The notes beneath the pieces were generated by a model. It saw only the letters and a list, made by a program, of their open reading frames with translations. It was not told the origin of the DNA and searched no databases. The position numbers and the translations under genes are program-made. A stretch of 64,000 bases of DNA from Desulfobotulus alkaliphilus (lineage in GTDB: Bacteria > Desulfobacterota > Desulfobacteria > Desulfobacterales > ASO4-4): assembly GCF_007830435.1 (NCBI RefSeq), contig NZ_VLLC01000011.1:29268-93267 (forward strand), written 5' to 3'. Positions 21,747 to 62,854 of this stretch are shown piece after piece (within the stretch, counting starts at the first letter, position 1; every line of letters begins with the position of its first letter).

Positions 21747-23417
21747 ATGCGCAGCGGGCAAGTAAAAGACGGCATAGAAAGGGCTCCCCACAGGTCCCTT
21801 TTCAAGGCCATGGGGTATACGGATGAGGAAATCCGACGGCCGATCATCGGTATTGCCAATGCAGCCAATGACATCATACCGGGGCATGTGCACCTTGATA
21901 AGATCGTGGAAGCTGTCAAGGCCGGTATTTATATGGCAGGGGGGCTTCCCGTCACCTTTGGTGTGATTGGTGTCTGCGACGGTATTGCCATGAACCATAC
22001 GGGCATGCATTACTCCCTCGGAAGCCGGGAACTGATCGCCGATACCATTGAAGTCATGGCTACGGCCCATGCCTTTGACGGTCTGGTCATGGTTCCCAAC
22101 TGCGATAAGATTGTTCCGGGCATGCTCATGGCTGCGGCCCGCCTTGATCTGCCTACGGTGGTCATCAGCGGTGGTCCCATGCTGGCGGGTAAGCACCCAG
22201 AAAAGCCGGGCCAGAAGGTGGACCTCATTTCCGTATTTGAGGCTGTGGGTGCCGTCAAGAGGGGCACCATGGATGAAAGGGAGCTTGGGCTGATTGAGGA
22301 TGCCGCCTGCCCGACCTGCGGTTCCTGTTCCGGCATGTTCACGGCCAATTCCATGAACTGCCTGACGGAAGTCATCGGCATGGGGCTTCCCGGTAACGGC
22401 ACCGTACCTGCGGTTATGGCGGAGCGCCAGCGCATGGCCAAGTATGCGGGCATGAAGGTGATGGAGCTCCTTGGGGCAGGTATCACCCCCCGCAGCATCA
22501 TGACGGAAAAGGCCTTTGAGAATGCCCTGGCCGTGGATATGGCCTTAGGATGTTCCACCAATACCGTGCTGCATCTGCCGGCCATTGCCGGTGAGGCCGG
22601 AGTGAAGATTGACCTGTCCATGATCAATGAGGTCAGCGCCAAAACGCCCCACCTCTGTTCCTTGAGCCCCGGTGGCAAGGATCACATTGAAGATCTCAAC
22701 CGGGCAGGTGGCATATCCGCAGTGATGAAGGTGCTGGCCGATGCGGGCCGGATTCACGGAGACTGCATGACGGTGACAGGTAAAAGCGTTAGCGAGAATA
22801 TTGCCGCAAGCCGGGTGCTGGATGCGGATGTGATACGGCCCCTCAGCAATCCCTACCATGAGCAGGGTGGCCTTGCCGTTCTCTTCGGCAATCTGGCACC
22901 CGAAGGCTGTGTGGTAAAGCAGTCTGCGGTTCGGGATGAAATGATGGTCCATGAAGGCCCTGCACGGGTTTATAACTCCGAGGAGGCTGCTTCCGCTGCC
23001 ATTATGGCCGGGGAAATCCGCAAAGGGGATGTGGTGGTGATCCGCTATGAAGGCCCCAAGGGTGGTCCGGGCATGCGGGAAATGCTCACTCCCACTTCCA
23101 CCATCGCAGGCATGGGGCTGGACGGGGATGTGGCACTGATCACGGATGGCCGTTTTTCCGGCGGAACCCGTGGTGCAGCCATTGGCCATGTATCTCCCGA
23201 GGCCAGCAGCGGTGGTCCCATTGCCTTTGTGGAGGAAGGAGATATCATTTCCATTAATATCAGGGAAAAAAGTATTGCCCTGAAGGTGGAGGATGCGGTG
23301 CTGGAAAAGCGGAAAGCCTCATGGACGCCGCCAGCAGCGAAAATTACTAAGGGGTATATGGCCCGTTACAGCCAGAGGGTATCTTCCGCAAGCAGGGGTG
23401 CCGTGCTGGATGGGTAG
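21747..23417 (+). CDS. ilvD: dihydroxy-acid dehydratase IlvD
   Basis: The 556-residue iron-sulfur dehydratase converts 2,3-dihydroxy-isovalerate and -3-methylvalerate to the 2-keto acids of valine and isoleucine synthesis. Family motifs include the cluster cysteines in GVCDGI, PNCDKI and [19 protein letters not shown], and the C-terminal GPKGGPGM and [13 protein letters not shown] at 21747 has AAAGGA upstream and gives the usual [10 protein letters not shown]-terminus; the frame is open 10 codons earlier, inside the terminator. It is controlled by the leader/attenuator directly in front and followed by repeat R1 copy B and ilvB. Confidence 0.96.
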
Positions 23418-23428
23418 TTTGTTTTTTT

Positions 23429-23700
23429 GTAATTATTCAGAACAGTTTAATCTGAATTGCTAATGCTGTAATTGTAACAGGTTCGTACTGTTGCAAGGCT
23501 CCGTGGCTATTTGCAAGTGACATTGCAATCGTTTCGGATCAGAGCTTTGTCCGGCACTCAAGATCCTTGAAGCACTTTTGCTCCCGTAAAGGGCTTGAGC
23601 TTTTCAGCTTGAGTGCCGGATTGCGTCACGGGCAAATAGCCCGGGGTCTGTGCATCTGCCTTGCAGGTATGGTACTTGGAAAACTGTGCTGAACAGTTAC
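23429..23700. repeat. R1 palindromic mobile repeat, copy B
   Basis: The 272-bp element begins GTAATTATTCAGAACAG and ends CTGTGCTGAACAGTTAC, imperfect inverted termini. It carries the outer arms plus one 71-bp hairpin module at the apex. The flanks are GTTTTTTT on the left and GTTTTTTA on the right, a 7-of-8 direct repeat. It lies 11 bp after the ilvD stop and 47 bp before ilvB. Confidence 0.92.
23550..23620. repeat. R3 hairpin module within R1 copy B
   Basis: This 71-bp module has perfect inverted ends TCCGGCACTCAAG and CTTGAGTGCCGGA. Its interior closely matches the modules at 30467-30536 (inverted) and 39619-39689. Confidence 0.9.
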
Positions 23701-25943: not shown

Positions 25944-25948
25944 TTTTT

Positions 25949-26295
25949 GTAATTATTCAGCACCGTTTATTCCGAACTGCCAATGCTGTAGTTGCAGCAG
26001 CTTCATACTGTTGCAAGGCTCCGTGGCTATTTGCAAGTGACATTGCAATCGTTTCGGATCAGAGCTTTGCAGGCCTGTGCGAAAGAAGCGGCAAACTGTC
26101 TGAGCCGCCACAAAGGCAGCGTACCAAGGCCTGCTATGGTAATCAAAAAGCTTATCCTGCCTGTGGCGGGGAGTTTTTGCCGCTTCCGCACAGGACAAGA
26201 AGCTCCCGAATAAGATTGCGTCACGGGCAAATAGCCAGGGGCCTGTGCATCTGTCTCGCAGGTATGGTACTTGGAAAACCGTGCTGAACAGTTAC
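25949..26295. repeat. R1 palindromic mobile repeat, copy C
   Basis: The 347-bp element has ends GTAATTATTCAGCACCG and CGGTGCTGAACAGTTAC-like. It contains the middle inverted module (CCTGTGCG...CGCACAGG) but no R3 hairpin. It is flanked by the perfect 8-bp direct repeat TAATTTTT (25941-25948 and 26296-26303), direct evidence of transposition. Confidence 0.95.
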
Positions 26296-26386
26296 TAATT
26301 TTTTGAATTTATCCCTGAAGGGCAGAAGATGTTCTTCAGGGGTGAGGGATGTATTTTTATCCCGGCGGCCAGTCGCGTGGATTTTA

Positions 26387-30364: not shown

Positions 30365-30466
30365 TAAGGTAATTTTCACCAGAGTTGTAACTGTTCAGCA
30401 CAGCTTTCCAGGTACCATAGCTACCAGACAGATGCACAGGCCCCAGGCTATTTGCCCGTGACGCAA

Positions 30467-30536
30467 TCCGGCACTCAAGCTGAAAAGCTCAAGCCCTTTA
30501 CGGGAGCAAAAATGCCTATGGATCTTGAGTGCCGGA
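30467..30536. repeat. R3 hairpin module within R1 copy D (first)
   Basis: This 70-bp module has ends TCCGGCACTCAAG/CTTGAGTGCCGGA. Its interior is the inverted equivalent of those in copies B and E (second). Confidence 0.9.
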
Positions 30537-30672
30537 TTCGGGAGCTTCTTGCCCTGTGCGGAAGCGGCAAAAACTCCCCGCCACAGGCAGGATAAGCTTT
30601 TTGATTACCATGGCAGGCTTAAGCACGCTGCCTTTGTGGCGGCTCAGACAGTTTGCCGCTTCTTATTAGCAC

Positions 30673-30742
30673 TCCGGCACTCAAGCTTGCAAAAAACCAT
30701 TTTTTTCATCGCAGGCTCTGGGTTTATGGCTTGAGTGCCGGA
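30673..30742. repeat. R3 hairpin module within R1 copy D (second)
   Basis: This 70-bp module has the same 13-bp inverted ends, but its interior is unrelated to the module in the matching slot of copy E. Confidence 0.88.
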
Positions 30743-30960
30743 ATCCGAAACGATTGCAATGTCACTTGCCAATAGCCACGGAGCCTTGCAACAGTACGAA
30801 GCTGCTGCAACTACAGCATTGGCAGTTCGGAATAATTACCCAGAGTTTTTTAAAACGACTGGAATGTCACTTGCAAACAGGCAGGGTATCTTTTCCTGAC
30901 TTGAGGTGTCTGTGTCTGAAATATCGTGGCGTTTCGGGCCTTTTTTGTACAATAATATCC

Positions 30961-38419: not shown

Positions 38420-38488
38420 GAAAAAAGATTCCTTGGTATGGCGTTAAATAATGGGGGTTGAAAGCCCCCGTATCGGATAAATTTTTAT

Positions 38489-38712
38489 TCTGATTACCAC
38501 TGTTTTTCAGCCATAGGGAGTTTAATCCATGGAAATTATATGACCATATTTTACGGTTGTTGGCGGGCACCCGTAAAGGGTGCCCCTACAAAACAAGGGC
38601 CGAAAAAACATTCGCAGGGGCAGGCCTTGCACCTGCCCGTATGAAAGCTCTCACCATGGGCCTGACAACAATCTGACCAGCAGGGTCTGGCTGAGTCAGG
38701 GTAGTAATCAGA
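38489..38712. repeat. R2 mobile repeat, copy 1
   Basis: The 224-bp element has ends TCTGATTACC and GTAGTAATCAGA. It contains two internal GC-rich hairpins (GGGCACCC.GGGTGCCC and GGGGCAGG.CCTGCCC). The flanks ATTTTTAT and AATTTTAT form an 8-bp direct repeat with one mismatch. It is about 80-85 percent identical by eye to copies 2 and 3. Confidence 0.93.
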
Positions 38713-38738
38713 AATTTTATTGTCTTACCTTCAGTTTT

Positions 38739-39257: not shown

Positions 39258-39411
39258 GGGGTTCTCCTTTTTTTAGGGGTTTTATTGCCTGTTTGTAATT
39301 ATTCAGCACAGTTTATTCTGAACTGACAATGCTGTAATTACAGCAGCATCGTACTGTTGCAAGGCTCCGTGGCTATTTGCAAGTGACATTGCAATCGCAA
39401 TCGTTTCGGAT

Positions 39412-39482
39412 TCCGGCACTCAAGCTCTAAAACCAAAGCTAGTCATGTAAACGATGCAGCCTTTTCAGGCTTGAGTGCCGGA
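39412..39482. repeat. R3 hairpin module within R1 copy E (first)
   Basis: This 71-bp module has TCCGGCACTCAAG/CTTGAGTGCCGGA ends and an interior different from all the other modules. Confidence 0.88.
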
Positions 39483-39618
39483 GTGCTAATAAAAAGCGGC
39501 AAACTGTCTGAGCCGCCACAAAGGCAGCGTGCTTAAGCCTGCCATGGTAATCAAAAAGCTTATCCTGCCTGTGGCGGGGGGGTTTTTCCGCTTCCCCACA
39601 GGGCAAGAAACTCCCCAA

Positions 39619-39689
39619 TCCGGCACTCAAGATCCATAGGCATTTCTGCTCCCGTAAAGGGGCTTGCGTTTTTTAGCTTGAGTGCCGGA
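39619..39689. repeat. R3 hairpin module within R1 copy E (second)
   Basis: This 71-bp module has the same 13-bp ends. Its interior closely matches those of copy B and copy D (first), e.g. the shared TGCTCCCGTAAAGGG core. Confidence 0.9.
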
Positions 39690-39831
39690 TTGCGTCACGG
39701 GCAAATAGCCTGGGGCCTGTGCATCTGTCTTGCAGGTATGGTACTTGGAAAACTGTGCTGAACAGTTACTTTTTTTATTGCTATCCGATGACAGCGAAGA
39801 AATATAGCTTTTTTTTAAGACAAAGGGGTTT

Positions 39832-45200: not shown

Positions 45201-45206
45201 TTATTT

Positions 45207-45553
45207 GTAACTGTTCAGCACAGTTTATCTTGAACTGTCAATGCTGTAATTACAGCAGCTTTGTACTGTTGCAAGGCTCCGTGGCTATTTGCAAGTGACA
45301 TTGCAATCGTTTCGGATCAGAGCTTTGCAGGCCTGTGCGAAAGAAGCGGCAAACTGTCTGAGCCGCCACAAAGGCAGCGTACCAAAGCCTGCCATGGAAA
45401 TCAAAAAGCTTATCCTGCCTGTGGCGGGGAGTTTTTGCCGCTTCCGCACAGGGCAAGAAGCTCCCGAATAAGATTGCGTCACGGGCAAATAGCCTGGGGC
45501 CTGTGCGTCTGTCTTGCAGCTATGGAACTTGGAAAACTGTGCTGAATAATTAC
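45207..45553. repeat. R1 palindromic mobile repeat, copy F
   Basis: The 347-bp element is nearly identical in layout to copy C: outer arms plus middle module, no R3 hairpins. The ends are GTAACTGTTCAGCACAG and CTGTGCTGAATAATTAC. It is flanked by the perfect 8-bp direct repeat CATTATTT (45199-45206 and 45554-45561). Confidence 0.95.
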
Positions 45554-45639
45554 CATTATTTTATATAAGGCCTGAAAAATCAGATTGCAATTCGTAATAA
45601 AAAAAGGGACATTTTTTCTTTTTTTGAATGGAGCTGTGA

Positions 45640-46539
45640 ATGGCTAAAAAAAGGCAGAAAAAAGCAGAGTTTGTCAAATGGATGGGGCCTTTGCTGGATG
45701 CGCTGCGTCAGCTTGGAGATTCCGGAACCCCAAGGGAGGTTTCGGATCTGATTGCTGTGAACCTTGGTCTGCCCGATGAAAAAAAAGAAGAGCTGATGGA
45801 AAGCGGTACGCCCAGATTCCACAATCAGGTCTGCTGGGCAAGGCAGTACCTTGTGTGGGAAGGTTTCATTTCTGCTGAAAAAAGGGGTGTCTGGCAGTTG
45901 ACCGGAAAGGGAAGGGATACCTTTCTCACTGAGGAAGATGGCCGGATTCTTTTTAAAAAATGGGTTGAGATCAATACCAGACAGCGTAAGGCAAAGCAGG
46001 AGGCCGTTTCTCCTGATGACACACAGGAAAAGCAGGATGACAGTAACGGGGAAAAAGCAGAGGAGCCAGAGGAAGAATATCCCCATAGGGAAAAACTTCT
46101 GAATGTTCTCAGAAAGATTTCTCCGGACGGTTTTGAGCGCCTGTGCAAGTATATCCTCAGATTGTACGGCTTTGAGAATGTTCAGGTAACACCCAAAGGC
46201 AAAGATGGCGGCATTGATGGTTATGGTACACTGAAGCTGAATCCCTTTGTGAGTTTTAAGGTTATTTTCCAGTGCAAGAGATATCAGGGGACCGTATCCA
46301 GAGCCCAGATAGGGGATCTGCGCAATGCCATGCTCGGAAGGGCTGACAAGGGAATCATGATTACAACGGGCAACTTCTCAGAGGATGCCAAACGGGAAGC
46401 GGACAGGGAAGGTGCACCGCCCATTGAGCTTATTGACGCTGAAACCCTGATTGAAATGATGGAAAAAGAGGAAATTGGCTTAAAACCCAGAACGGTTTAT
46501 GATGTGGATTATCCGTTTTTTGAAAAATATATGGATTGA
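45640..46539 (+). CDS. mrr: Mrr-type restriction endonuclease
   Basis: The 299-residue protein has an N-terminal winged-helix Mrr_N domain (about 8-100), an acidic linker, and a C-terminal PD-(D/E)XK nuclease domain: FERLCKYILRLYGFENVQV, GKDGGIDGYG (catalytic Asp), and the QCKRYQ motif (Gln-x-Lys). Mrr cuts modified foreign DNA. A clear AT-rich promoter stretch lies between repeat R1 copy F and the gene. A 34-bp copy of part of its nuclease motif region occurs at 49120-49153. The GNAT gene follows with 2 bp between. Confidence 0.93.
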   Translation: MAKKRQKKAEFVKWMGPLLDALRQLGDSGTPREVSDLIAVNLGLPDEKKEELMESGTPRFHNQVCWARQYLVWEGFISAEKRGVWQLTGKGRDTFLTEEDGRILFKKWVEINTRQRKAKQEAVSPDDTQEKQDDSNGEKAEEPEEEYPHREKLLNVLRKISPDGFERLCKYILRLYGFENVQVTPKGKDGGIDGYGTLKLNPFVSFKVIFQCKRYQGTVSRAQIGDLRNAMLGRADKGIMITTGNFSEDAKREADREGAPPIELIDAETLIEMMEKEEIGLKPRTVYDVDYPFFEKYMD

Positions 46540-47003: not shown

Positions 47004-47217
47004 TCCATGTGTTCTGGGGGGCTCTGTTATACTCTGCGCACTCATTCCTGATACATGGGGCACCCTTGAAACGATATGGAAAATCTCTTGATCGGTGCAT
47101 TTGATATTTTCTATTGTTTCAAAGCCTGCCCTGTTTTTGGGCAACCGAGTGTACCTGCAGAAAACCCATTTCCGATTCAGGTTCGTTTTTTAGATATCTG
47201 AAAGATCAGGAGGAAAA

Positions 47218-49072: not shown

Positions 49073-49153
49073 TTAAAAAACATCAACACATGGGGAGATT
49101 CGGATGCGCTGTATCCTGATGTTCAGGTGACACCCAAGGGCAAAGATGGTGGC
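49073..49153 (+). pseudogene. chimeric scar: GT1 gene 5' end joined to an mrr fragment
   Basis: Positions 49073-49120 repeat, with a few changes, the region 53074-53122 that includes the ribosome site and first five codons of the glycosyltransferase gene. Directly after, 49120-49153 repeats 46180-46213 inside mrr with three changes. The resulting frame stops at once. It records a past recombination or deletion involving copies of both genes. Confidence 0.75.
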
Positions 49154-49154
49154 C

Positions 49155-49814
49155 TTACGCCCCCGGTTCTCCCATGAGCAGTCGGTTTTTGGGGGTAATG
49201 ACCGATGGGATGGCTGCGGTATAAATGTCATATCCAGCCGCCCGGAGTTTCAGTGCCCTGACCGCATCCACGGCCAGATCCGGCGGCATCCATGGGGTAA
49301 GGCCGCCCGTATCACAGGTCTCAAGATCGTGGCAGCAGGGCAGCACGGCCACTCGGGTACGGGCAGCCACGGCCCTCGTCAGAATGCGGTCGGTCAGGCA
49401 GCCGCAGGCATGGGCGGAGACCACAAGATCTTCGGGTAAAAGCGTAATTTCTTCCATGTCCCGGGTTTCAAAGCAGACCCGGTCCTTCAGAAAGGGCCAG
49501 GTTTCGGCCATGGCGGCAAACAGCGCTTCAGCACTTTTGGGTATCCGGGTATCCACAGCCAGACCTGAGGGGGATGTCTGGTCCAGAATCAGCAGGATCT
49601 GGGCCAGAAGGCCGTGACCGCAGGCCAGATCCACCACCCTTCCCCCCCGGAACCGCCGCCGTATCCTTCTGGCCATTTCCCAGGCCTCGTAGAGTTCTTT
49701 TCTGGGCAGGACGCCAGCCCGGCAGACAGTCCGGGCAATGCGGCAAAAAAGGGTGTCTTCAGGGAACAGATCCTGATGCATGGGCATGAGACGGTTTTTG
49801 CTGGAAAGTTTCAT
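49155..49814 (-). CDS. class I methyltransferase-like protein
   Basis: The 219-residue protein has a SAM-binding motif VVDLACGHGLLAQIL (about 58-72), AVDTRIP and a HACGCLTDRIL motif, followed by VLPCCHDLETC. The Cys/His-rich middle and the RNA-methyltransferase-like pattern are reminiscent of TRM13/DUF-type methyltransferases acting on RNA, but the substrate is not clear. The start at 49814 has GGAAGA upstream and excludes a poor open stretch up to 49982. It is convergent with the permease gene, with the scar at its 3' end. Confidence 0.78.
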   Translation of the reverse strand: MKLSSKNRLMPMHQDLFPEDTLFCRIARTVCRAGVLPRKELYEAWEMARRIRRRFRGGRVVDLACGHGLLAQILLILDQTSPSGLAVDTRIPKSAEALFAAMAETWPFLKDRVCFETRDMEEITLLPEDLVVSAHACGCLTDRILTRAVAARTRVAVLPCCHDLETCDTGGLTPWMPPDLAVDAVRALKLRAAGYDIYTAAIPSVITPKNRLLMGEPGA

Positions 49815-50247
49815 GTAAGATCTTCCGGTGAAAGGGTTTTTATCCGGCCCACAATGAAGGCAGGATTTATTCAAAAAATGCCCCTGATGTTTGTTTTGTT
49901 CGCCCTGATCATCACCAGAGTCAACGGGAAATACCGCAGGTGCGTAAGCATATATCAGGAAGGTATAAAAATATACCTTCATTCCAGTATATTATATAAT
50001 GCATTGTAAAAGATTTCATATGATTATATGATTGTACGAAATAACTGGTATCTGCTTCATTGATATTCCCATGAAGGGTTTGCCCGAGACTGAATTCTGA
50101 GTGTATCGCCAGACTTGGCACCTCATCTTATCTCTCAAAAACTTGAAGACCACCGGGTGAGAAGATTTCGGAACCGGAGACCTTTCTACACTGGCTGCCC
50201 CCTTGTGTTCCACACACCTTCAACCCCTTCTTTATCTGGATATGCCC
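49815..50247. other. intergenic interval, no gene recognised
   Basis: This interval between divergent genes contains an AT-rich centre (about 49960-50060) suited to promoters. No RNA gene, repeat family or short frame with a ribosome site was found. Confidence 0.4.
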
Positions 50248-50883
50248 ATGAAGAAGATCGACCTTGCCACCTATAAGCGAAGGGGAATGTTTGCGGCCTT
50301 CAAGGATCGGGATATTCCTTTTTTTTCAACCTCAAGCCATATTGACATAAGCAATCTGAAAAAATTTATTGATGACCAAAGGTGCGGTTTTTTTCTGTCT
50401 GTCAGCTTTCTGATCACAAAAGCCGTGAATTCTGTACCAGAACTGCGGCACAGGGTCATTGATGGGGATCTTTTTGAATTCAAAAGGGTGGCTCCGGGCT
50501 TTACCGTGCTTTTGGAAGATGAGACTTTTTCCTTTTGTGATTCCCGGTATTTTGATTCCTTTGAGACGTATCGGAGATATTCGGAAGCAAAAATTCAGGA
50601 GGTGAAGGAATGTCCTGACCAGAGCACCGGGGAAAAACATCACATGTTTTTCATCACCAGTCTGCCATGGTTCAGTTTTACATCCATTGTGCATCCCCAT
50701 GACAGGCAGTATGGGTACATTCCTGTGGTGAGCATCGGAAAATATTTTCAAGAAGGCGAGAGGCTCCTGCTTCCCGTCGGAATTCAGGTCAACCATGCCC
50801 TGGTGGATGGTATCCATGTGGGCAAATTTTATCGGCAACTGTCGAATATGTGTGAGTATCCTGAGCTTTGGCTGTCCGTATGA
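50248..50883 (+). CDS. chloramphenicol-acetyltransferase-fold acyltransferase
   Basis: The 211-residue protein has the CAT trimeric acyltransferase fold: MKKIDLATYKRR at the start, FSTSSHIDIS, and the catalytic motif NHALVDGIHVGKFY near residues 186-199, where the His is the general base. CAT-like enzymes acetylate chloramphenicol or other small molecules. The DGIHV form and the flanking biosynthetic-type genes leave room for a native metabolite as substrate. ATG 50248 matches the family start; ATG 50242 is an alternative. Confidence 0.82.
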   Translation: MKKIDLATYKRRGMFAAFKDRDIPFFSTSSHIDISNLKKFIDDQRCGFFLSVSFLITKAVNSVPELRHRVIDGDLFEFKRVAPGFTVLLEDETFSFCDSRYFDSFETYRRYSEAKIQEVKECPDQSTGEKHHMFFITSLPWFSFTSIVHPHDRQYGYIPVVSIGKYFQEGERLLLPVGIQVNHALVDGIHVGKFYRQLSNMCEYPELWLSV

Positions 50884-50980
50884 AGGGGGGGCACAGGTTG
50901 TCAGGCCGGTGAGGAATCGTAAGCGTACGCTCGTCTGGAGATACCCGTCCAGTTTATTCAGATCCTGATGGAGGCATGGC

Positions 50981-52993
50981 ATGGAAAAACAGGTGCAGCA
51001 TGTTATCATCGTTGATGGCTTTTCCACCGGAACTTTTTATCCGCCGCTGCTGCGGGAGCGTGGAATTCCGGCAGTGCATGTACGTTCCGGTACCGTTGTT
51101 CCGGATGGACAGTTCGGAAAGGTTGTGGAGGAACTCCTCAGCCGGGTAAGCCGGGATTATGCGGCCATGCTGGAGGAAGGGCCGGATCTTGATGGCCTTG
51201 TCCGGAATCTTTCGGCCTTTACGCCCTGTGCCGTGCTTGCGGGCTGTGAAACGGGCGTGGAACTGGGTGATCTTTTGGCGGCACGCCTTTCCCTTTCCGG
51301 CAATGATCCGGCCTCAAGCGCCACCCGCCGCAACAAATATGAAATGCATCAAGCCCTTGCCCGTGCCGGACTGCGGCATCTCTCCAGTCTGCTGACCGAC
51401 AGCCTCGATGCCCTGCTCGGCTGGATACGGGAGGGAGACAGGCTGCCCGTGGTTCTCAAGCCGACAAGCAGTGCCGGTGCCGACGGGATTCATGTTTGCA
51501 AAACCTTGGAAGAGGTGCGTAAGGCATTCCATGTGCTGATGGGAGCATACGACTTTTTCGGTCGGAAACTTGGACTGGTTCTGGCCCAGGAATTTGCACC
51601 GGGGGTGGAGGTGGTTGTGAACACGGTTTCATGTCAGGGCCGTCACAGGGTCAGTGACCTTTGGCGCTACAGCAAAATGATTACCCCCGAAGGCCGCTCG
51701 GTTTATGACGGTGGAGGACTTGTTGCGGATTTCGGGGAGGATACGGAGCGGGTTCTGAAGTATGCTTTTGCCGCACTGGATGCCCTGAATATCCGTTTCG
51801 GACCGGCCCACAGCGAAATCATGATCACCCCCTCGGGGCCCGTACTGATCGAATGCGGCGCGAGGCCCATGGGTGCCTCTTTTCCACAGGATCTGCTCCG
51901 GGAATCCGTCGGGCATACCCAGCTGGAGCTGGCCCTGCAGGCCGTCCTTGATCCTGAAGTCTTTATGGCCCAGCTGAACACCCCTTATGTTCTTCGGAAA
52001 CACTTCTTCATTAAAAACCTTGTCTCTAACAGGCAGGGCGGTCTCGATGCCACCCCGGCCGTGACCCTTCTTTCAGGCCTGCCTTCGGTGCGCAGCGGCA
52101 ACTTTTTGCATTGTCTGGAAAGTGGCCATGTGGAGCAGACCGTGGATCTGCTCACCTCACCGGCAACCCTTTTTCTGTGCCATGAAAATCCGGATGTGCT
52201 CCGCGAGGATCATGAGCTGATCACCTCCCTGGAAGAGGAAGGCCAGAACCTGCTTTTTGAGCTGACATCCATGGACGGAGCCCACCCGGATCCGGACTGG
52301 TTTCAGCGGATACCCGATGAACTCTGGCTCCGTCCGGAAAGCGAGGGCGAAGTGGATGCGGATACGGTGTGGAAGGCCCTCGGGCTTTTGCCCGGTCAGG
52401 AGGTGCTGGACTGTCCCTGCGGAGATGCCCGCTTCGGACAGAATCTTGCCCGCAGGGGTGTCCGCTATACCGGCGTTGACATCAACCCCCGTTTCATTGA
52501 CCGCGCCCGTCAGCGTTTTTCCGGTCTCGGGCTTGAAGGAAGCCTTTCCGTCGGGGACATGCGCTCACTTGGTTTTGAAAACTGCTTTGATGCCGTGATC
52601 AACTGGTTCAACAGTTTTGGGTATTTTGATGTTGAAACGGACTTTCTTGTTCTTAAAAATCTGGCGGCTGCCCTGCGGCCGGGAGGTCTGCTCCTCATTG
52701 AAGCCCCCAGCCGCAGCAATATCATTGTTAATACAACGCCTAAATTTGACAGTGACGGAAAGGAACTGGAGCGCCGCTGGGATGAAATCAGCGAACGCAT
52801 GTTTCTGCCCGTGCCAGTAACGGAAGAGGGCAGGATTGTGCATGTGCTTACCGGCCCGAGGCTGTACTCCATCAGTCAGTACAAACTTCTGTTCCGCCTT
52901 GCAGGGCTGACCTTTGTAACGGTATATGACGAAAAACTCGGACCCTTCACGGATACTTCACGGCGGATGATTCTGCTTGCACGTAAAAACTGA
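50981..52993 (+). CDS. ATP-grasp ligase fused to a SAM methyltransferase
   Basis: The 670-residue protein has an ATP-grasp ligase part (about 1-430) with RRNKYEMHQALARAG, VVLKPTSSAGADGIHVC, AQEFAPGVEVVVN and the metal-binding region ending in LIECGARPMGASFP. That pattern resembles L-amino-acid ligases such as BacD. The C-terminal part (about 455-670) is a class I methyltransferase with VLDCPCGDARFGQNLA and GVDINPRFIDRA. It would join a carboxylate to an amine and methylate the product. GGAGG lies upstream of the ATG. It sits between a CAT-like acyltransferase and a GT1 gene. Confidence 0.85.
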   Translation: MEKQVQHVIIVDGFSTGTFYPPLLRERGIPAVHVRSGTVVPDGQFGKVVEELLSRVSRDYAAMLEEGPDLDGLVRNLSAFTPCAVLAGCETGVELGDLLAARLSLSGNDPASSATRRNKYEMHQALARAGLRHLSSLLTDSLDALLGWIREGDRLPVVLKPTSSAGADGIHVCKTLEEVRKAFHVLMGAYDFFGRKLGLVLAQEFAPGVEVVVNTVSCQGRHRVSDLWRYSKMITPEGRSVYDGGGLVADFGEDTERVLKYAFAALDALNIRFGPAHSEIMITPSGPVLIECGARPMGASFPQDLLRESVGHTQLELALQAVLDPEVFMAQLNTPYVLRKHFFIKNLVSNRQGGLDATPAVTLLSGLPSVRSGNFLHCLESGHVEQTVDLLTSPATLFLCHENPDVLREDHELITSLEEEGQNLLFELTSMDGAHPDPDWFQRIPDELWLRPESEGEVDADTVWKALGLLPGQEVLDCPCGDARFGQNLARRGVRYTGVDINPRFIDRARQRFSGLGLEGSLSVGDMRSLGFENCFDAVINWFNSFGYFDVETDFLVLKNLAAALRPGGLLLIEAPSRSNIIVNTTPKFDSDGKELERRWDEISERMFLPVPVTEEGRIVHVLTGPRLYSISQYKLLFRLAGLTFVTVYDEKLGPFTDTSRRMILLARKN

Positions 52994-53105
52994 AAACAGG
53001 AGGCGGTGGATCTGTATATAATGTGGGCATCAGCCATGTCCAGACACTGACCCTTGATTTTTTAGAAAATCATCTTAAAAAACATCAAAATACAGGGAGA
53101 TTCAG

Positions 53106-54368
53106 ATGCGCTGTATCCTGATACCTGTAGGCAGCCACGGAGATGTACATCCCCTTCTGGGGCTGGGAGTTCATTTGCAGGAAGAGGGTCATGAGGTGAT
53201 CGTCTGCACCTGCGGTTACTTCAGGGAGCTTGTGGAAAAGTGCGGCCTGCGCTTTGAAGAGGTGGGAACTGCGGAAGATTATCTGGATCTTATCGCCAGC
53301 CCGGATCTCTGGAATCCATTGAAAAGTTATACCTATATGTTCCGAAAAACGGGAAAGGCACTCATGCAGACCCAGTTTGAAACCATCTCCCGCCTGCATG
53401 AACCGGGAAAAACCCTTCTGATCAGCAGCTATCTGGCCATGGGAGCACGTATTGCCCAGGAGAAGCTGGGGCTTCCCCTGATCTCGGTCATCTACCAGCC
53501 CGCTGCCCTCTGGAGCATCCATGATACGCCCCGCTATTTTGGCATGCTCACCGGCCCGAGTGTGCCAAAATTCCTCAAACGACTTCAGGGCTGGCTCCTG
53601 CTTGACGGCCTCATCGGTGCCGTTATTGCACCTCCCCTCAACCGTTACAGAAAAAGTCTGGGTCTGGCTCCTGTCCGTAAAGTGGATCAGTGGCTGCTTT
53701 CCAACAGCTTTGTGCTGGCGGCTTTTCCCAAATGGTTTGCCCCCGCACAGCCGGACTGGCCCCGGCATATCCTTCATATTGGCTTTCCCATGTGGGATGG
53801 TATGGGAGAAAAAAATCTTCCTCCGGAAGTGGAAGACTTTCTTGCACAGGGCGAAGCCCCCCTTGTTTTCACGCCCGGAACGGCCAATATGCATGCAGTC
53901 CGCTTTTTTGAAAGTGCCAGAGATGCCTGTGTCATGCTGGGAAAAAGGGCTGTTTTTCTGACAAGATTTCCGCAACAGCTTCCCGAAAACCTCCCGGCCT
54001 CCATTCTCTGCCACAGTTATCTGCCCTTAAGTCTTCTTCTGCCAAGGGCCACGGCTCTGGTGCACCATGGGGGCATTGGTACGGCCTCTCAGGCCTTCCG
54101 TGCAGGTATTCCCCAGCTCATCATGCCCATGAGTTTTGACCAGCATGACAATGCCGAAAGGGTCAGGCGTCTTGGAGCAGGGGCCTTTCTCAGTCCTGGA
54201 AGGTTTACGGCTCCAAGGCTTGCAGGCCTTCTGCGCAGAATTTGTCAGGACCTGAAAATCCGTCAAAACTGCCGGGAAATCAGTCTCGCCATGCAGGGGG
54301 AAAATGCTTTTACCTGCGCCCGCAGGGCCCTTGAAATGTTAGGGGAAAATGCAGGAGCTGTTTTGTGA
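53106..54368 (+). CDS. GT1-family glycosyltransferase
   Basis: The 420-residue enzyme has the GT-B fold of UDP-glycosyltransferases. The N-terminal acceptor domain begins with ILIPVGSHGDVHPLLGLG, and the C-terminal donor domain carries the signature VHHGGIGTASQAFRAGIPQL and DQHDNAERV. Such enzymes glycosylate sterols, macrolides, lipids and other hydrophobic small molecules. GGGAG lies before the ATG. It follows the ligase/methyltransferase gene by 112 bp on the same strand. A partial copy of its 5' end is at 49073-49120. Confidence 0.9.
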   Translation: MRCILIPVGSHGDVHPLLGLGVHLQEEGHEVIVCTCGYFRELVEKCGLRFEEVGTAEDYLDLIASPDLWNPLKSYTYMFRKTGKALMQTQFETISRLHEPGKTLLISSYLAMGARIAQEKLGLPLISVIYQPAALWSIHDTPRYFGMLTGPSVPKFLKRLQGWLLLDGLIGAVIAPPLNRYRKSLGLAPVRKVDQWLLSNSFVLAAFPKWFAPAQPDWPRHILHIGFPMWDGMGEKNLPPEVEDFLAQGEAPLVFTPGTANMHAVRFFESARDACVMLGKRAVFLTRFPQQLPENLPASILCHSYLPLSLLLPRATALVHHGGIGTASQAFRAGIPQLIMPMSFDQHDNAERVRRLGAGAFLSPGRFTAPRLAGLLRRICQDLKIRQNCREISLAMQGENAFTCARRALEMLGENAGAVL

Positions 54369-54398
54369 TTTTTTTGTGTGTATCTGATTGGCAGGTCT

Positions 54399-54475
54399 CT
54401 TCTGAGTAACTTCAAAAGTTACTTTATGACAAAACGCCGCAACACGGCGTGGGTTGCTTCTGAGTAACTTGTGCC
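54399..54475 (+). repeat. short tandem words and hairpins between GT1 and the unknown gene
   Basis: The word CTTCTGAGTAACTT occurs twice (about 54400 and 54458). Between the copies are two hairpins: GTAACTT/AAGTTAC and CGCCG/CGGCG. The role is unclear; the first hairpin may contribute to termination. Confidence 0.5.
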
Positions 54476-54567
54476 GGATGCAAACCCATTTCGATCAGTG
54501 ATGGATGGTTGGCCATTTTTTAAGCTTTTGAATTAAAAGAACTAAATTTAAGCTGCTCAGGTGTTGT

Positions 54568-55326
54568 TTATCGGGAGGACATTTTGGGTTTAATGCTTTC
54601 CCAGCCCTTGGGAGATGCCAGCGCACCAATGGTCAGGGCGAATGTATTTATATCCTGACTGGGCGTATCTAATTCTAACTCACCTAATAAAATAGCGACA
54701 ATGGCCTGTGCCTGACGGCAGCCTTTTTTTCCACCTGTCTTTAGTTTCCTTAATACAGGCTCAATTTCCGGACGAGCTGCATTTTGAAGGGCCTGAGACA
54801 TCCGGTTCCTATCTTGTCCTGAAGTGCCCTGAATTTTTTTCTGTATCACCCGTCCAGCGGAGTAGAGCATTTCGAAAGGTGAGCCGACAACGGTACCTGC
54901 AATGGCTCCACGAGCCGCGCGACTGTTCAACTGATTACAAATAAATGTTAAAACCTCAGAGCAGTTCGCAACCGGTACCATTGCGATTTTTTTGAAAATT
55001 GGGGCAGTACAAGTGCATGGATAATCCCCCAGCTTGTATAATTTGTAATTTTTTGCATACTTTGCATCGGTTAGTGCCCAAAGCGTTTCTTGCAGGCTTC
55101 CTGCTTTATATGCCTTGTATGCTCCCACAAAAGGTGATGCTATCATGGTTAATGGGTTCAGGTTATGCAAGGCCTGCCCGATGGCATGGCTTGATCCTGT
55201 CGTTGCAACCGGATTAAGGGTAGATACAATTTTATTGAGGCGACGGTTCCAGTCCACTTGGCTGGCATAGTCTTTGTCTGTTGACATATACGCTATTATT
55301 TCATCGAGTTCGGGTATCTTTGCCAT
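54568..55326 (-). CDS. uncharacterised protein
   Basis: The 252-residue protein has no signal peptide. It contains several weakly hydrophobic Gly/Ala-rich stretches (about 55-75 and 135-160, e.g. ARGAIAGTVVGSP), a CTCTAP motif, and a Lys-rich C-terminal third. The glycine-rich segment may insert in a membrane. GGAGAA stands before the ATG. Codon use is less GC-rich than in the neighbours, which may point to recent acquisition. It ends next to repeat R2 copy 2. I do not recognise the family. Confidence 0.65.
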   Translation of the reverse strand: MAKIPELDEIIAYMSTDKDYASQVDWNRRLNKIVSTLNPVATTGSSHAIGQALHNLNPLTMIASPFVGAYKAYKAGSLQETLWALTDAKYAKNYKLYKLGDYPCTCTAPIFKKIAMVPVANCSEVLTFICNQLNSRAARGAIAGTVVGSPFEMLYSAGRVIQKKIQGTSGQDRNRMSQALQNAARPEIEPVLRKLKTGGKKGCRQAQAIVAILLGELELDTPSQDINTFALTIGALASPKGWESIKPKMSSR

Positions 55327-55349
55327 TTTTTTTCTCCTTTATTAAAAAT

Positions 55350-55572
55350 TCTGATTGCTACCCTGACTCAGCCAGAGCCTGCTGGTCAGATTGTTGTCAG
55401 GCCCATGGTGAGAGCTTTCATACGGGCAGGCGCAAGGCCTGCCCCTACGAATGTTTTTTACGGTCCTGTTTTGTAGGGGCACCCTTTACGGGTGCCCGCC
55501 AACAATCGTAAAATCTGGTCATGTAATCTCCATGGCTTAAAGTTCCTATGGCTGAAAGACGTGGTAACCCGA
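55350..55572. repeat. R2 mobile repeat, copy 2 (inverted)
   Basis: The 223-bp element is in the opposite orientation to copies 1 and 3. The left end is TCTGATTGCTACCC and the right end is degenerate (GTGGTAACCCGA). It is flanked by the perfect 8-bp direct repeat TTAAAAAT (55342-55349 and 55573-55580). Confidence 0.94.
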
Positions 55573-55929
55573 TTAAAAATAAGCTGCTTTTTCGTGTCTG
55601 TCCTTAAGCCTGTTCGGGGCAGACGGGAAAAGAGCCTGTCTGCTGTACCAGTGGCTGATGGTGCTCCATGAATATTCCCTGCCGGAGGTAATGGTGACAT
55701 CAGGAAGTTCCGTTACGGCTGCATTCCCCGCATTAAGATTGCCATTGCTGCACGCATAGAATGCCATTTCAACCTTCCGGTGCCGTTCAGGTTTACAAGA
55801 CATGGAGCGGTTATTTCCAGCTTTTTACCGAGGCTCTGAGTATCTGAGGATGACTCCGTTTTTCATGGGCAGGATGTTTTCATACTCTTTTTAAATAATT
55901 CTTTTTTTTACAATTTGCAATAAAGACAA
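55573..55929. other. intergenic interval, no gene recognised
   Basis: After repeat R2 copy 2 there is an unassigned stretch. A minus-strand open frame of 76 codons crosses it and the repeat edge, but it lacks a ribosome site and any family resemblance. A T-rich tract at about 55885-55915 precedes the structured leader. Confidence 0.4.
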
Positions 55930-55937
55930 AAAATGGG

Positions 55938-56032
55938 GTAAGGCCTTCCGGAGGAGGCCTCTGAAATCCGTCTGCCGCCTTAATACGGAACCGGCAGGGG
56001 GGTGAGCCGAAGGAAAAGGGCGGGCCTTTTTT
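55938..56032 (+). promoter_or_regulatory. structured leader RNA candidate before the ion transporter
   Basis: Three mutually complementary segments are present: AAGGCC (55940-55945), AGGCCT (55955-55960) and GGGCCTTTTTT (56022-56032). Either of the first two can pair with the third, and they can also pair with each other around TCCGGAGG. CTGCCG (55972-55977) pairs with CGGCAG (55992-55997). The last segment ends in a T run, as in a switchable terminator. It lies 30 bp before the start codon. The ligand class is not identified. Confidence 0.5.
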
Positions 56033-62574: not shown

Positions 62575-62629
62575 CGATCCGCCTCTCCGACAATCGGTTC
62601 CAGAAATCCTTCCCTATGCATTAAGGAAA

Positions 62630-62854
62630 TCTGATTATCACTCTCTTTCAGCCATAGAAATTTTAAGCCATGGAAATTACATGTCCAGATTTTGCGATTG
62701 TTGACGGGCACCCGTAAAGGGTGCCCCTACAAAACAGGGGCCGTAAAAACCATTCGTAGGGGCAGGCCTTGCGCCTGCCCGCATGAAAGCTCTCACCATG
62801 GACCTGACAACAATCTGGTCAGCAGGCTATGGCTGAGTCAGGGTAGTAATCAGA
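62630..62854. repeat. R2 mobile repeat, copy 3
   Basis: The 225-bp element has ends TCTGATTATC and GTAGTAATCAGA. It is flanked by the perfect 8-bp direct repeat TAAGGAAA (62622-62629 and 62855-62862). It has the same internal hairpins as copies 1 and 2. Confidence 0.95.

What the first reader, a model, noticed from the sequence alone, without database searches (positions are those of the whole stretch)
50248..54368. Possible small biosynthetic cluster: acyltransferase, ligase-methyltransferase, glycosyltransferase
A CAT-fold acyltransferase, an ATP-grasp ligase fused to a methyltransferase and a GT1 enzyme lie on one strand within 4.1 kb. More methyltransferases lie nearby. The chemistry implied is amide bond formation, methylation, acylation and glycosylation of a small molecule. 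The ligase-methyltransferase fusion is not one I can name.
Basis: inference. Interest (0 to 1): 0.7.

Follow-up and report, generated by a model that had tools for sequence, protein, structure and literature searches.

The report
Amino-acid ligase fused to methyltransferase
One gene in an anaerobic-type bacterium joins an enzyme that links two amino acids to an enzyme that adds a methyl group, an unusual fusion, but the 'three-gene cluster' around it looks like a neighbourhood made by DNA rearrangement rather than a long-lived biosynthetic pathway.

Summary
The three genes are real and at the stated coordinates: CAT-fold acyltransferase (50248-50883), ATP-grasp ligase fused to a class I methyltransferase (50981-52993) and a GT1-type glycosyltransferase (53106-54368). 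The reading as one biosynthetic cluster is only partly supported. The acyltransferase is a resident gene: both congeners carry it (91% and 82% identity) without the fusion or the glycosyltransferase. The fusion and the glycosyltransferase are private to this genome among the three of its genus, and no close ligase relative was found in samples of 395 phylum, 389 order and 321 class genomes. A 48-bp copy of the glycosyltransferase's 5' end and a 38-bp restriction-gene fragment at 49073-49156 form a scar showing that the segment was rearranged. The part worth keeping is the fusion. Its ligase half belongs to the PRK07206/dapdiamide-synthase-like amino-acid ligase subfamily; none of 46 genomic relatives has the methyltransferase fusion, yet 6 of 46 have a separate methyltransferase gene immediately upstream. 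Best guess: it makes a dipeptide and methylates it, probably on the free amine. A new domain variant of known enzymes; pathway and product unknown.

The parts
50248..50883 (+). CAT-fold O-acyltransferase (P0001). HxxxDG catalytic motif intact (NHALVDG); Thr where CAT-III has the Ser of its ISALPW motif. Genus-resident gene.
   Evidence: present in congeners G002 (91%) and G001 (82%):
50981..52270 (+). ATP-grasp amino-acid ligase domain (residues 1-430), PRK07206/DdaF-like; K119, K160, H277, E279, E291 invariant and R295 nearly invariant in the family
52271..52993 (+). Class I SAM-dependent methyltransferase domain (residues ~431-670), fused in frame; DCPCGDAR SAM-binding motif; model pLDDT 86.5, pTM 0.85; nearest solved structure is the bacillithiol N-methyltransferase NmbA
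53106..54368 (+). GT1/GT28-type glycosyltransferase (P0003) with HHGGIGT...DQHDNA donor-site motif; absent from both congeners, 52% identical gene in G011 of the same order
54568..55326 (-). ORF of unknown function (252 aa), no match in Pfam, NCBIfam, PHROGs or PADLOC; lies in the segment missing from the congeners
49155..49982 (-). Methyltransf_32 gene, divergent neighbour of the CAT and conserved with it in G002
49073..49156 (.). Rearrangement scar: 48-bp copy of the GT 5' end (53075-53122, 90%) joined to a 38-bp internal fragment of the Mrr gene (46178-46215, 89%)
50918..56028 (.). Segment absent from the syntenic locus of congener G002 (its CAT is followed directly by the permease, and its permease by the CitMHS gene)

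Best explanation
ORF 50981-52993 encodes a bifunctional enzyme. Its N-terminal ATP-grasp domain activates one amino acid as an acyl phosphate and joins it to a second amino acid (or amine). Its C-terminal class I methyltransferase then methylates the product or one substrate with SAM, most likely on the free alpha-amine of the product. The gene is probably foreign to this genus. The glycosyltransferase downstream may glycosylate the product, but that step rests on adjacency only. The CAT-like acyltransferase is an older resident gene with a separate, probably detoxifying, acyl-transfer role and is not part of the pathway. Shown: genes, domains, intact motifs, absence from congeners, the rearrangement scar, recurrent ligase-methyltransferase gene pairing elsewhere. 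Inferred: ligation and N-methylation chemistry, order of steps, horizontal origin, role of the CAT. Unknown: substrates and product.
For: Ligase half: 326 bits to PRK07206 and 36-38% identity to its best relatives; a solved chain deposited as 'L-amino acid ligase' (30vh) aligns over residues 8-419 with E 4e-67. ATP-grasp residues invariant. Six of 46 genomic relatives have a separate methyltransferase gene directly upstream, in three phyla; those in the tree form one supported clade (100/99). The methyltransferase domain's best structural hits include N-methyltransferases acting on aminoacyl amines: NmbA (E 1.7e-19) and CypM; NmbA methylates the cysteine nitrogen of bacillithiol (PMC12719100). 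No comparable ligase elsewhere in samples of 395 phylum, 389 order and 321 class genomes (overlapping), apart from one at 27% identity. CAT conserved without the other two genes in congeners.
Against: No biochemical data. The fused methyltransferase does not group with the ligase-adjacent methyltransferases (its place in the tree is unresolved), so their pairing supports coupling only by analogy. NmbA matches ordinary stand-alone methyltransferases of the phylum more strongly than this one (122 and 105 against 81 bits), so N-methylation is a weak inference; carboxyl methylation is possible. Ligases of this superfamily have surprised when tested: CysD does not make the predicted Val-Val (PMC11427300). 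Base composition of the fusion gene is not foreign.
Confidence: 0.55

Rival explanations
1. The three genes are one co-inherited biosynthetic operon making an acylated, methylated, glycosylated amide.
For: Same strand, gaps of 97 and 112 bp, good ribosome sites on the fusion gene and the GT. GT and fusion are both absent from the congeners.
Against: CAT occurs without the others in both congeners. No CAT or GT near 51 fetched ligase loci. The GT's 52% homologue lies beside a radical SAM gene, not a ligase. A GT 5' fragment lies on the other side of the CAT/fusion block.
Confidence: 0.15
2. Fusion plus GT form a two-gene unit, acquired together; the CAT is unrelated.
For: Both are missing from G001 and G002; adjacent, co-directional, similar G+C (0.54-0.57).
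Against: No locus with both was found among the ligase relatives or the phylum GT hits; the duplicated 48 bp starts between the two genes, so they may have met by rearrangement.
Confidence: 0.4
3. The methyltransferase domain makes a carboxyl methyl ester (protecting group or cap), as CysG does before ATP-grasp ligation in cystargolide assembly, rather than N-methylating.
For: Precedent of transient carboxyl methylation in a pathway with an ATP-grasp ligase (PMC11427300).
Against: Nearest solved relatives are mostly N-methyltransferases (NmbA, CypM, glycine N-methyltransferase).
Confidence: 0.25
4. A low-molecular-weight thiol pathway: ligase in place of BshC, NmbA-like methylation, GT in place of BshA.
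For: NmbA is the closest solved relative of the methyltransferase domain; ligase + GT + methyltransferase recalls N-methyl-bacillithiol assembly.
Against: BshC is absent from this genome and both congeners; the GT is GT1/GT28-like by family match; NmbA matches unrelated methyltransferases better.
Confidence: 0.04

Closest known systems
PRK07206 / NF005543 ATP-grasp subfamily, including DdaF-like L-amino acid ligases
   Same: Ligase half scores above the curated cut-off (326 vs 302 bits) over its whole length
   Different: Most relatives end at about the equivalent of residue 425-440; this one continues into a methyltransferase
Dapdiamide A synthase DdaF (Pantoea)
   Same: Same fold and subfamily, about 32% identity
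   Different: Far below the DdaF equivalog cut-off (209 vs 840 bits); no sign of the dda partner genes among the neighbours examined
HalD halogenase - methyltransferase - ATP-grasp gene sets (Pantoea ananatis LMG 2665, Pantoea deserta, Paenibacillus caseinilyticus)
   Same: Same two enzyme types next to each other
   Different: Separate genes in the order methyltransferase-ligase, with a HalD gene (PF23169); no halogenase among the window genes examined; methyltransferases not closely related
Double ATP-grasp fusion in Streptomyces (L052, L054, L055, L061, L062)
   Same: Same ligase family carrying an extra C-terminal enzyme
   Different: The extra part is a second ATP-grasp-like enzyme (read from L055 and L062), not a methyltransferase
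NmbA, bacillithiol N-methyltransferase (PDB 9ri2)
   Same: Nearest solved structure of the methyltransferase domain, 28% identity
   Different: Stand-alone; this genome lacks BshC
Chloramphenicol acetyltransferase type A and CatA-like families
   Same: Fold and HxxxDG motif
   Different: Below all curated CatA cut-offs (129.5 vs 270 bits for CatA)
Rifamycin-inactivating glycosyltransferase Rgt / macrolide glycosyltransferases
   Same: Best NCBIfam matches of the GT
   Different: Far below the cut-offs (111 vs 800 bits for Rgt, 88 vs 260 for MGT)

Membership tests
PRK07206 (NF005543) ATP-grasp ligase | Whole-protein score at or above the curated cut-off of 302 bits | tested here: met
   326 bits, residues 6-422
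L-amino acid ligase (ATP-grasp) | Conserved ATP/Mg/substrate residues | tested here: met
   K119, K160, H277, E279, E291 invariant and R295 nearly invariant in 19 aligned sequences
L-amino acid ligase (ATP-grasp) | ATP-dependent formation of a dipeptide | not testable with these tools
   needs enzyme assay
Dapdiamide A synthase DdaF | Score at or above 840 bits | tested here: not met
   208.6 bits
NmbA (N-methyl-bacillithiol pathway) | Genome encodes BshC | tested here: not met
   no match to TIGR03998 in own genome or two congeners; the control search rang in Bacillus subtilis
NmbA (N-methyl-bacillithiol pathway) | Clear orthology of the methyltransferase | tested here: not met
   28% identity, 81 bits; stand-alone methyltransferases of the phylum score 105-122 bits
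Chloramphenicol acetyltransferase CatA | Catalytic HxxxDG motif | tested here: met
   NHALVDG aligned to HHAVCDG of CAT-III
Chloramphenicol acetyltransferase CatA | Curated CatA cut-off (270 bits) | tested here: not met
   129.5 bits
Antibiotic-inactivating glycosyltransferase (Rgt, MGT) | Curated cut-offs 800 / 260 bits | tested here: not met
   111.5 / 88.3 bits
Biosynthetic gene cluster of three genes | Genes kept together in relatives | tested here: not met
   CAT found without the others in G001 and G002; no CAT or GT near the ligase relatives
Biosynthetic gene cluster of three genes | Co-transcription of the three genes | not testable with these tools
   gaps 97 and 112 bp; a terminator-like hairpin at 50935-50952 lies between CAT and fusion, but such hairpins are no commoner here than in shuffles

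The most novel reading that the evidence does not exclude
A single polypeptide that ligates two amino acids and N-methylates the product, giving N-methyl dipeptides without an NRPS, which the neighbouring glycosyltransferase then glycosylates: a minimal two-gene route to glycosylated N-methyl dipeptides in an anaerobic-type bacterium.
Probability: 0.15. Interest if true: 0.6.

Novelty: new variant of a known kind. Interest (0 to 1): 0.35.

Why it matters
Amino-acid ligases of this family and methyltransferases are separate gene products in every relative seen here. A natural fusion points to coupled chemistry, would be a compact tool for making methylated dipeptides without an NRPS, and gives a direct handle on what the recurrent methyltransferase-ligase gene pairs do. 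The three-gene cluster itself is probably ordinary juxtaposition.

Tried and rejected
Direct back-translated search of genome contigs with the fusion found nothing; an alignment-based search found 46 ligase relatives but no methyltransferase fusion. Apparent whole-length matches in L050, L058, L065, L071 and L075 turned out to be separate adjacent genes. Phages: no match; plasmids: 211 records, none covering 80% of the query; viral contigs: none. G171 has a GT relative and an ATP-grasp gene on one contig, but the latter is a distant ligase about 4 kb away on the other strand. Bacillithiol-like pathway rejected because BshC is absent. An alignment joining ligase and methyltransferase relatives for a full-length model misaligned, so only the methyltransferase domain was folded. 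Literature searches found no description of this fusion; the library is incomplete. Other phyla could not be used as centres for a fusion census.

Full report
Observation. ORF 50248-50883 is a CAT-fold protein (PF00302, E 8e-37), 50981-52993 an ATP-grasp protein followed in the same frame by a class I methyltransferase, and 53106-54368 a GT1/GT28-type glycosyltransferase. The ATP-grasp part is weak in Pfam but scores 326 bits against PRK07206 (cut-off 302) and 209 against dapdiamide A synthase (cut-off 840). The fusion is a single open frame; the internal Met431 at the junction has no ribosome-binding site, whereas the start of the fusion gene (GGAGG) and of the GT (GGGAG) do. The methyltransferase domain models well (pLDDT 86.5, pTM 0.85).

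The acyltransferase is not part of a conserved cluster. Both other genomes of the genus carry it (91% in G002, 82% in G001), and neither has the fusion or the glycosyltransferase. In G002 a block matching window 49152-50917 (91% DNA identity), that is, the divergent Methyltransf_32 gene and the CAT, lies between the Mrr gene and the permease, and the permease is followed directly by the CitMHS gene. The window has the permease and this block in the other order and an extra 5.1 kb (50918-56028) holding the fusion, the GT and an orphan ORF. In G001 the CAT lies elsewhere with other neighbours.

Rearrangement scar. Between the permease and the Methyltransf_32 gene, 49073-49120 is a 90% copy of 53075-53122 (the 31 bases before the GT start and its first 17 bases), joined to 49119-49156, an 89% copy of an internal piece of the Mrr gene. 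The segment has therefore been broken and rejoined, with one break at the 5' end of the GT gene. Adjacency of the fusion gene and the GT could thus be recent; I give a shared history of the two somewhat less than even odds.

The ligase family elsewhere. An alignment-based scan of one genome per species gave 46 related ligase loci in Actinomycetota, Pseudomonadota, Bacillota and Myxococcota; this scan used two short motifs and is not exhaustive. 211 plasmid records also match but none covers 80% of the query. Within the window's phylum nothing comparable was found in a 395-genome sample, a 389-genome order sample or a 321-genome class sample (overlapping samples), apart from one 27% match in G472, which favours horizontal gain. 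None of the relatives carries the methyltransferase fusion; six Streptomyces-type loci carry an extended C-terminal part, which in L055 and L062 reads as a second ATP-grasp-like enzyme. No CAT or GT relative lies near any of the 51 fetched ligase loci. But six of the 46 have a separate methyltransferase gene directly upstream of the ligase (Pantoea ananatis, Pantoea deserta, Paenibacillus caseinilyticus, an Actinomycetota MAG, two Conexibacter), and in the first three a HalD-type halogenase gene (PF23169) precedes it. The eight methyltransferases of this kind in the tree form one clade (100/99); the fused domain is not in it, its position being unresolved. In the ligase tree the window protein groups weakly (84/85) with Micromonospora and Microbispora ligases that have an asparagine-synthase-like gene nearby (recognised by eye from the sequence), and in Micromonospora a taurine-dioxygenase-like gene. 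So ligase and methyltransferase have been paired more than once, and here they are fused, in the opposite order.

Chemistry. Invariant K119, K160, H277, E279, E291 and nearly invariant R295 are consistent with a working ATP-grasp ligase; a solved 'L-amino acid ligase' (30vh) aligns over residues 8-419. The methyltransferase domain's closest structure is NmbA, which methylates the cysteine nitrogen of bacillithiol, followed by CypM and other mostly N-methyltransferases; but NmbA matches ordinary methyltransferases of the phylum better and BshC is absent from this genome, so this is unlikely to be a bacillithiol enzyme. N-methylation of a dipeptide is my first guess and carboxyl methylation, as in cystargolide assembly (PMC11427300), the alternative.

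Verdict. Real genes, a real and unusual fusion, but the three-gene cluster is not supported by comparison. The fusion is a new domain combination of two known enzyme kinds. That it is private to this genome makes evolutionary support for a pathway thin; only biochemistry can tell what it makes.

Noticed in passing
window 45204-45562, with copies at 25946-26304, 30387-30828, 39292-39778, 23407-23700 and 1-127: Intergenic repeat family of about 360 bp that is one long imperfect inverted repeat (DNA fold z-score -9), MITE-like.
   Followed up: partly
window 55343-55580, 38481-38719, 62628-62854: Second intergenic repeat family of about 230 bp, about 91% identical between copies, with matches at dozens of places in congener G002 and fewer in G001; no Rfam match.
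   Followed up: partly
window 47024-47185: Short intergenic repeats also found at several places in congener G002, lying between the GNAT gene and the permease near a breakpoint.
   Followed up: no
L049 6470-9239, L050 7068-9844, L058 7094-9882: Gene set HalD halogenase - methyltransferase - PRK07206 ligase shared by Pantoea and Paenibacillus; looks like a pathway to a halogenated, methylated dipeptide.
   Followed up: partly
L052, L054, L055, L056, L061, L062: Ligases with a long C-terminal extension in Streptomyces-type genomes, a second ATP-grasp-like part where read; in L052, L054, L055 and L061 a further single ligase gene lies nearby on the other strand.
   Followed up: partly
L065 7902-10632, L071 7902-10614, L075 7902-10704: Two tandem methyltransferases followed by the ligase gene in Conexibacter-like Actinomycetota.
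   Followed up: partly
L109 5549-8369, L108 3-2281: Relatives of the glycosyltransferase lie divergently beside a similar large gene in two genomes of the phylum; in L109 that gene is a PF02458 (BAHD-type) acyltransferase, a family best known from plants.
   Followed up: no
window 54568-55326: Orphan 252-aa ORF in the segment missing from congeners, no match in any family library tried.
   Followed up: partly
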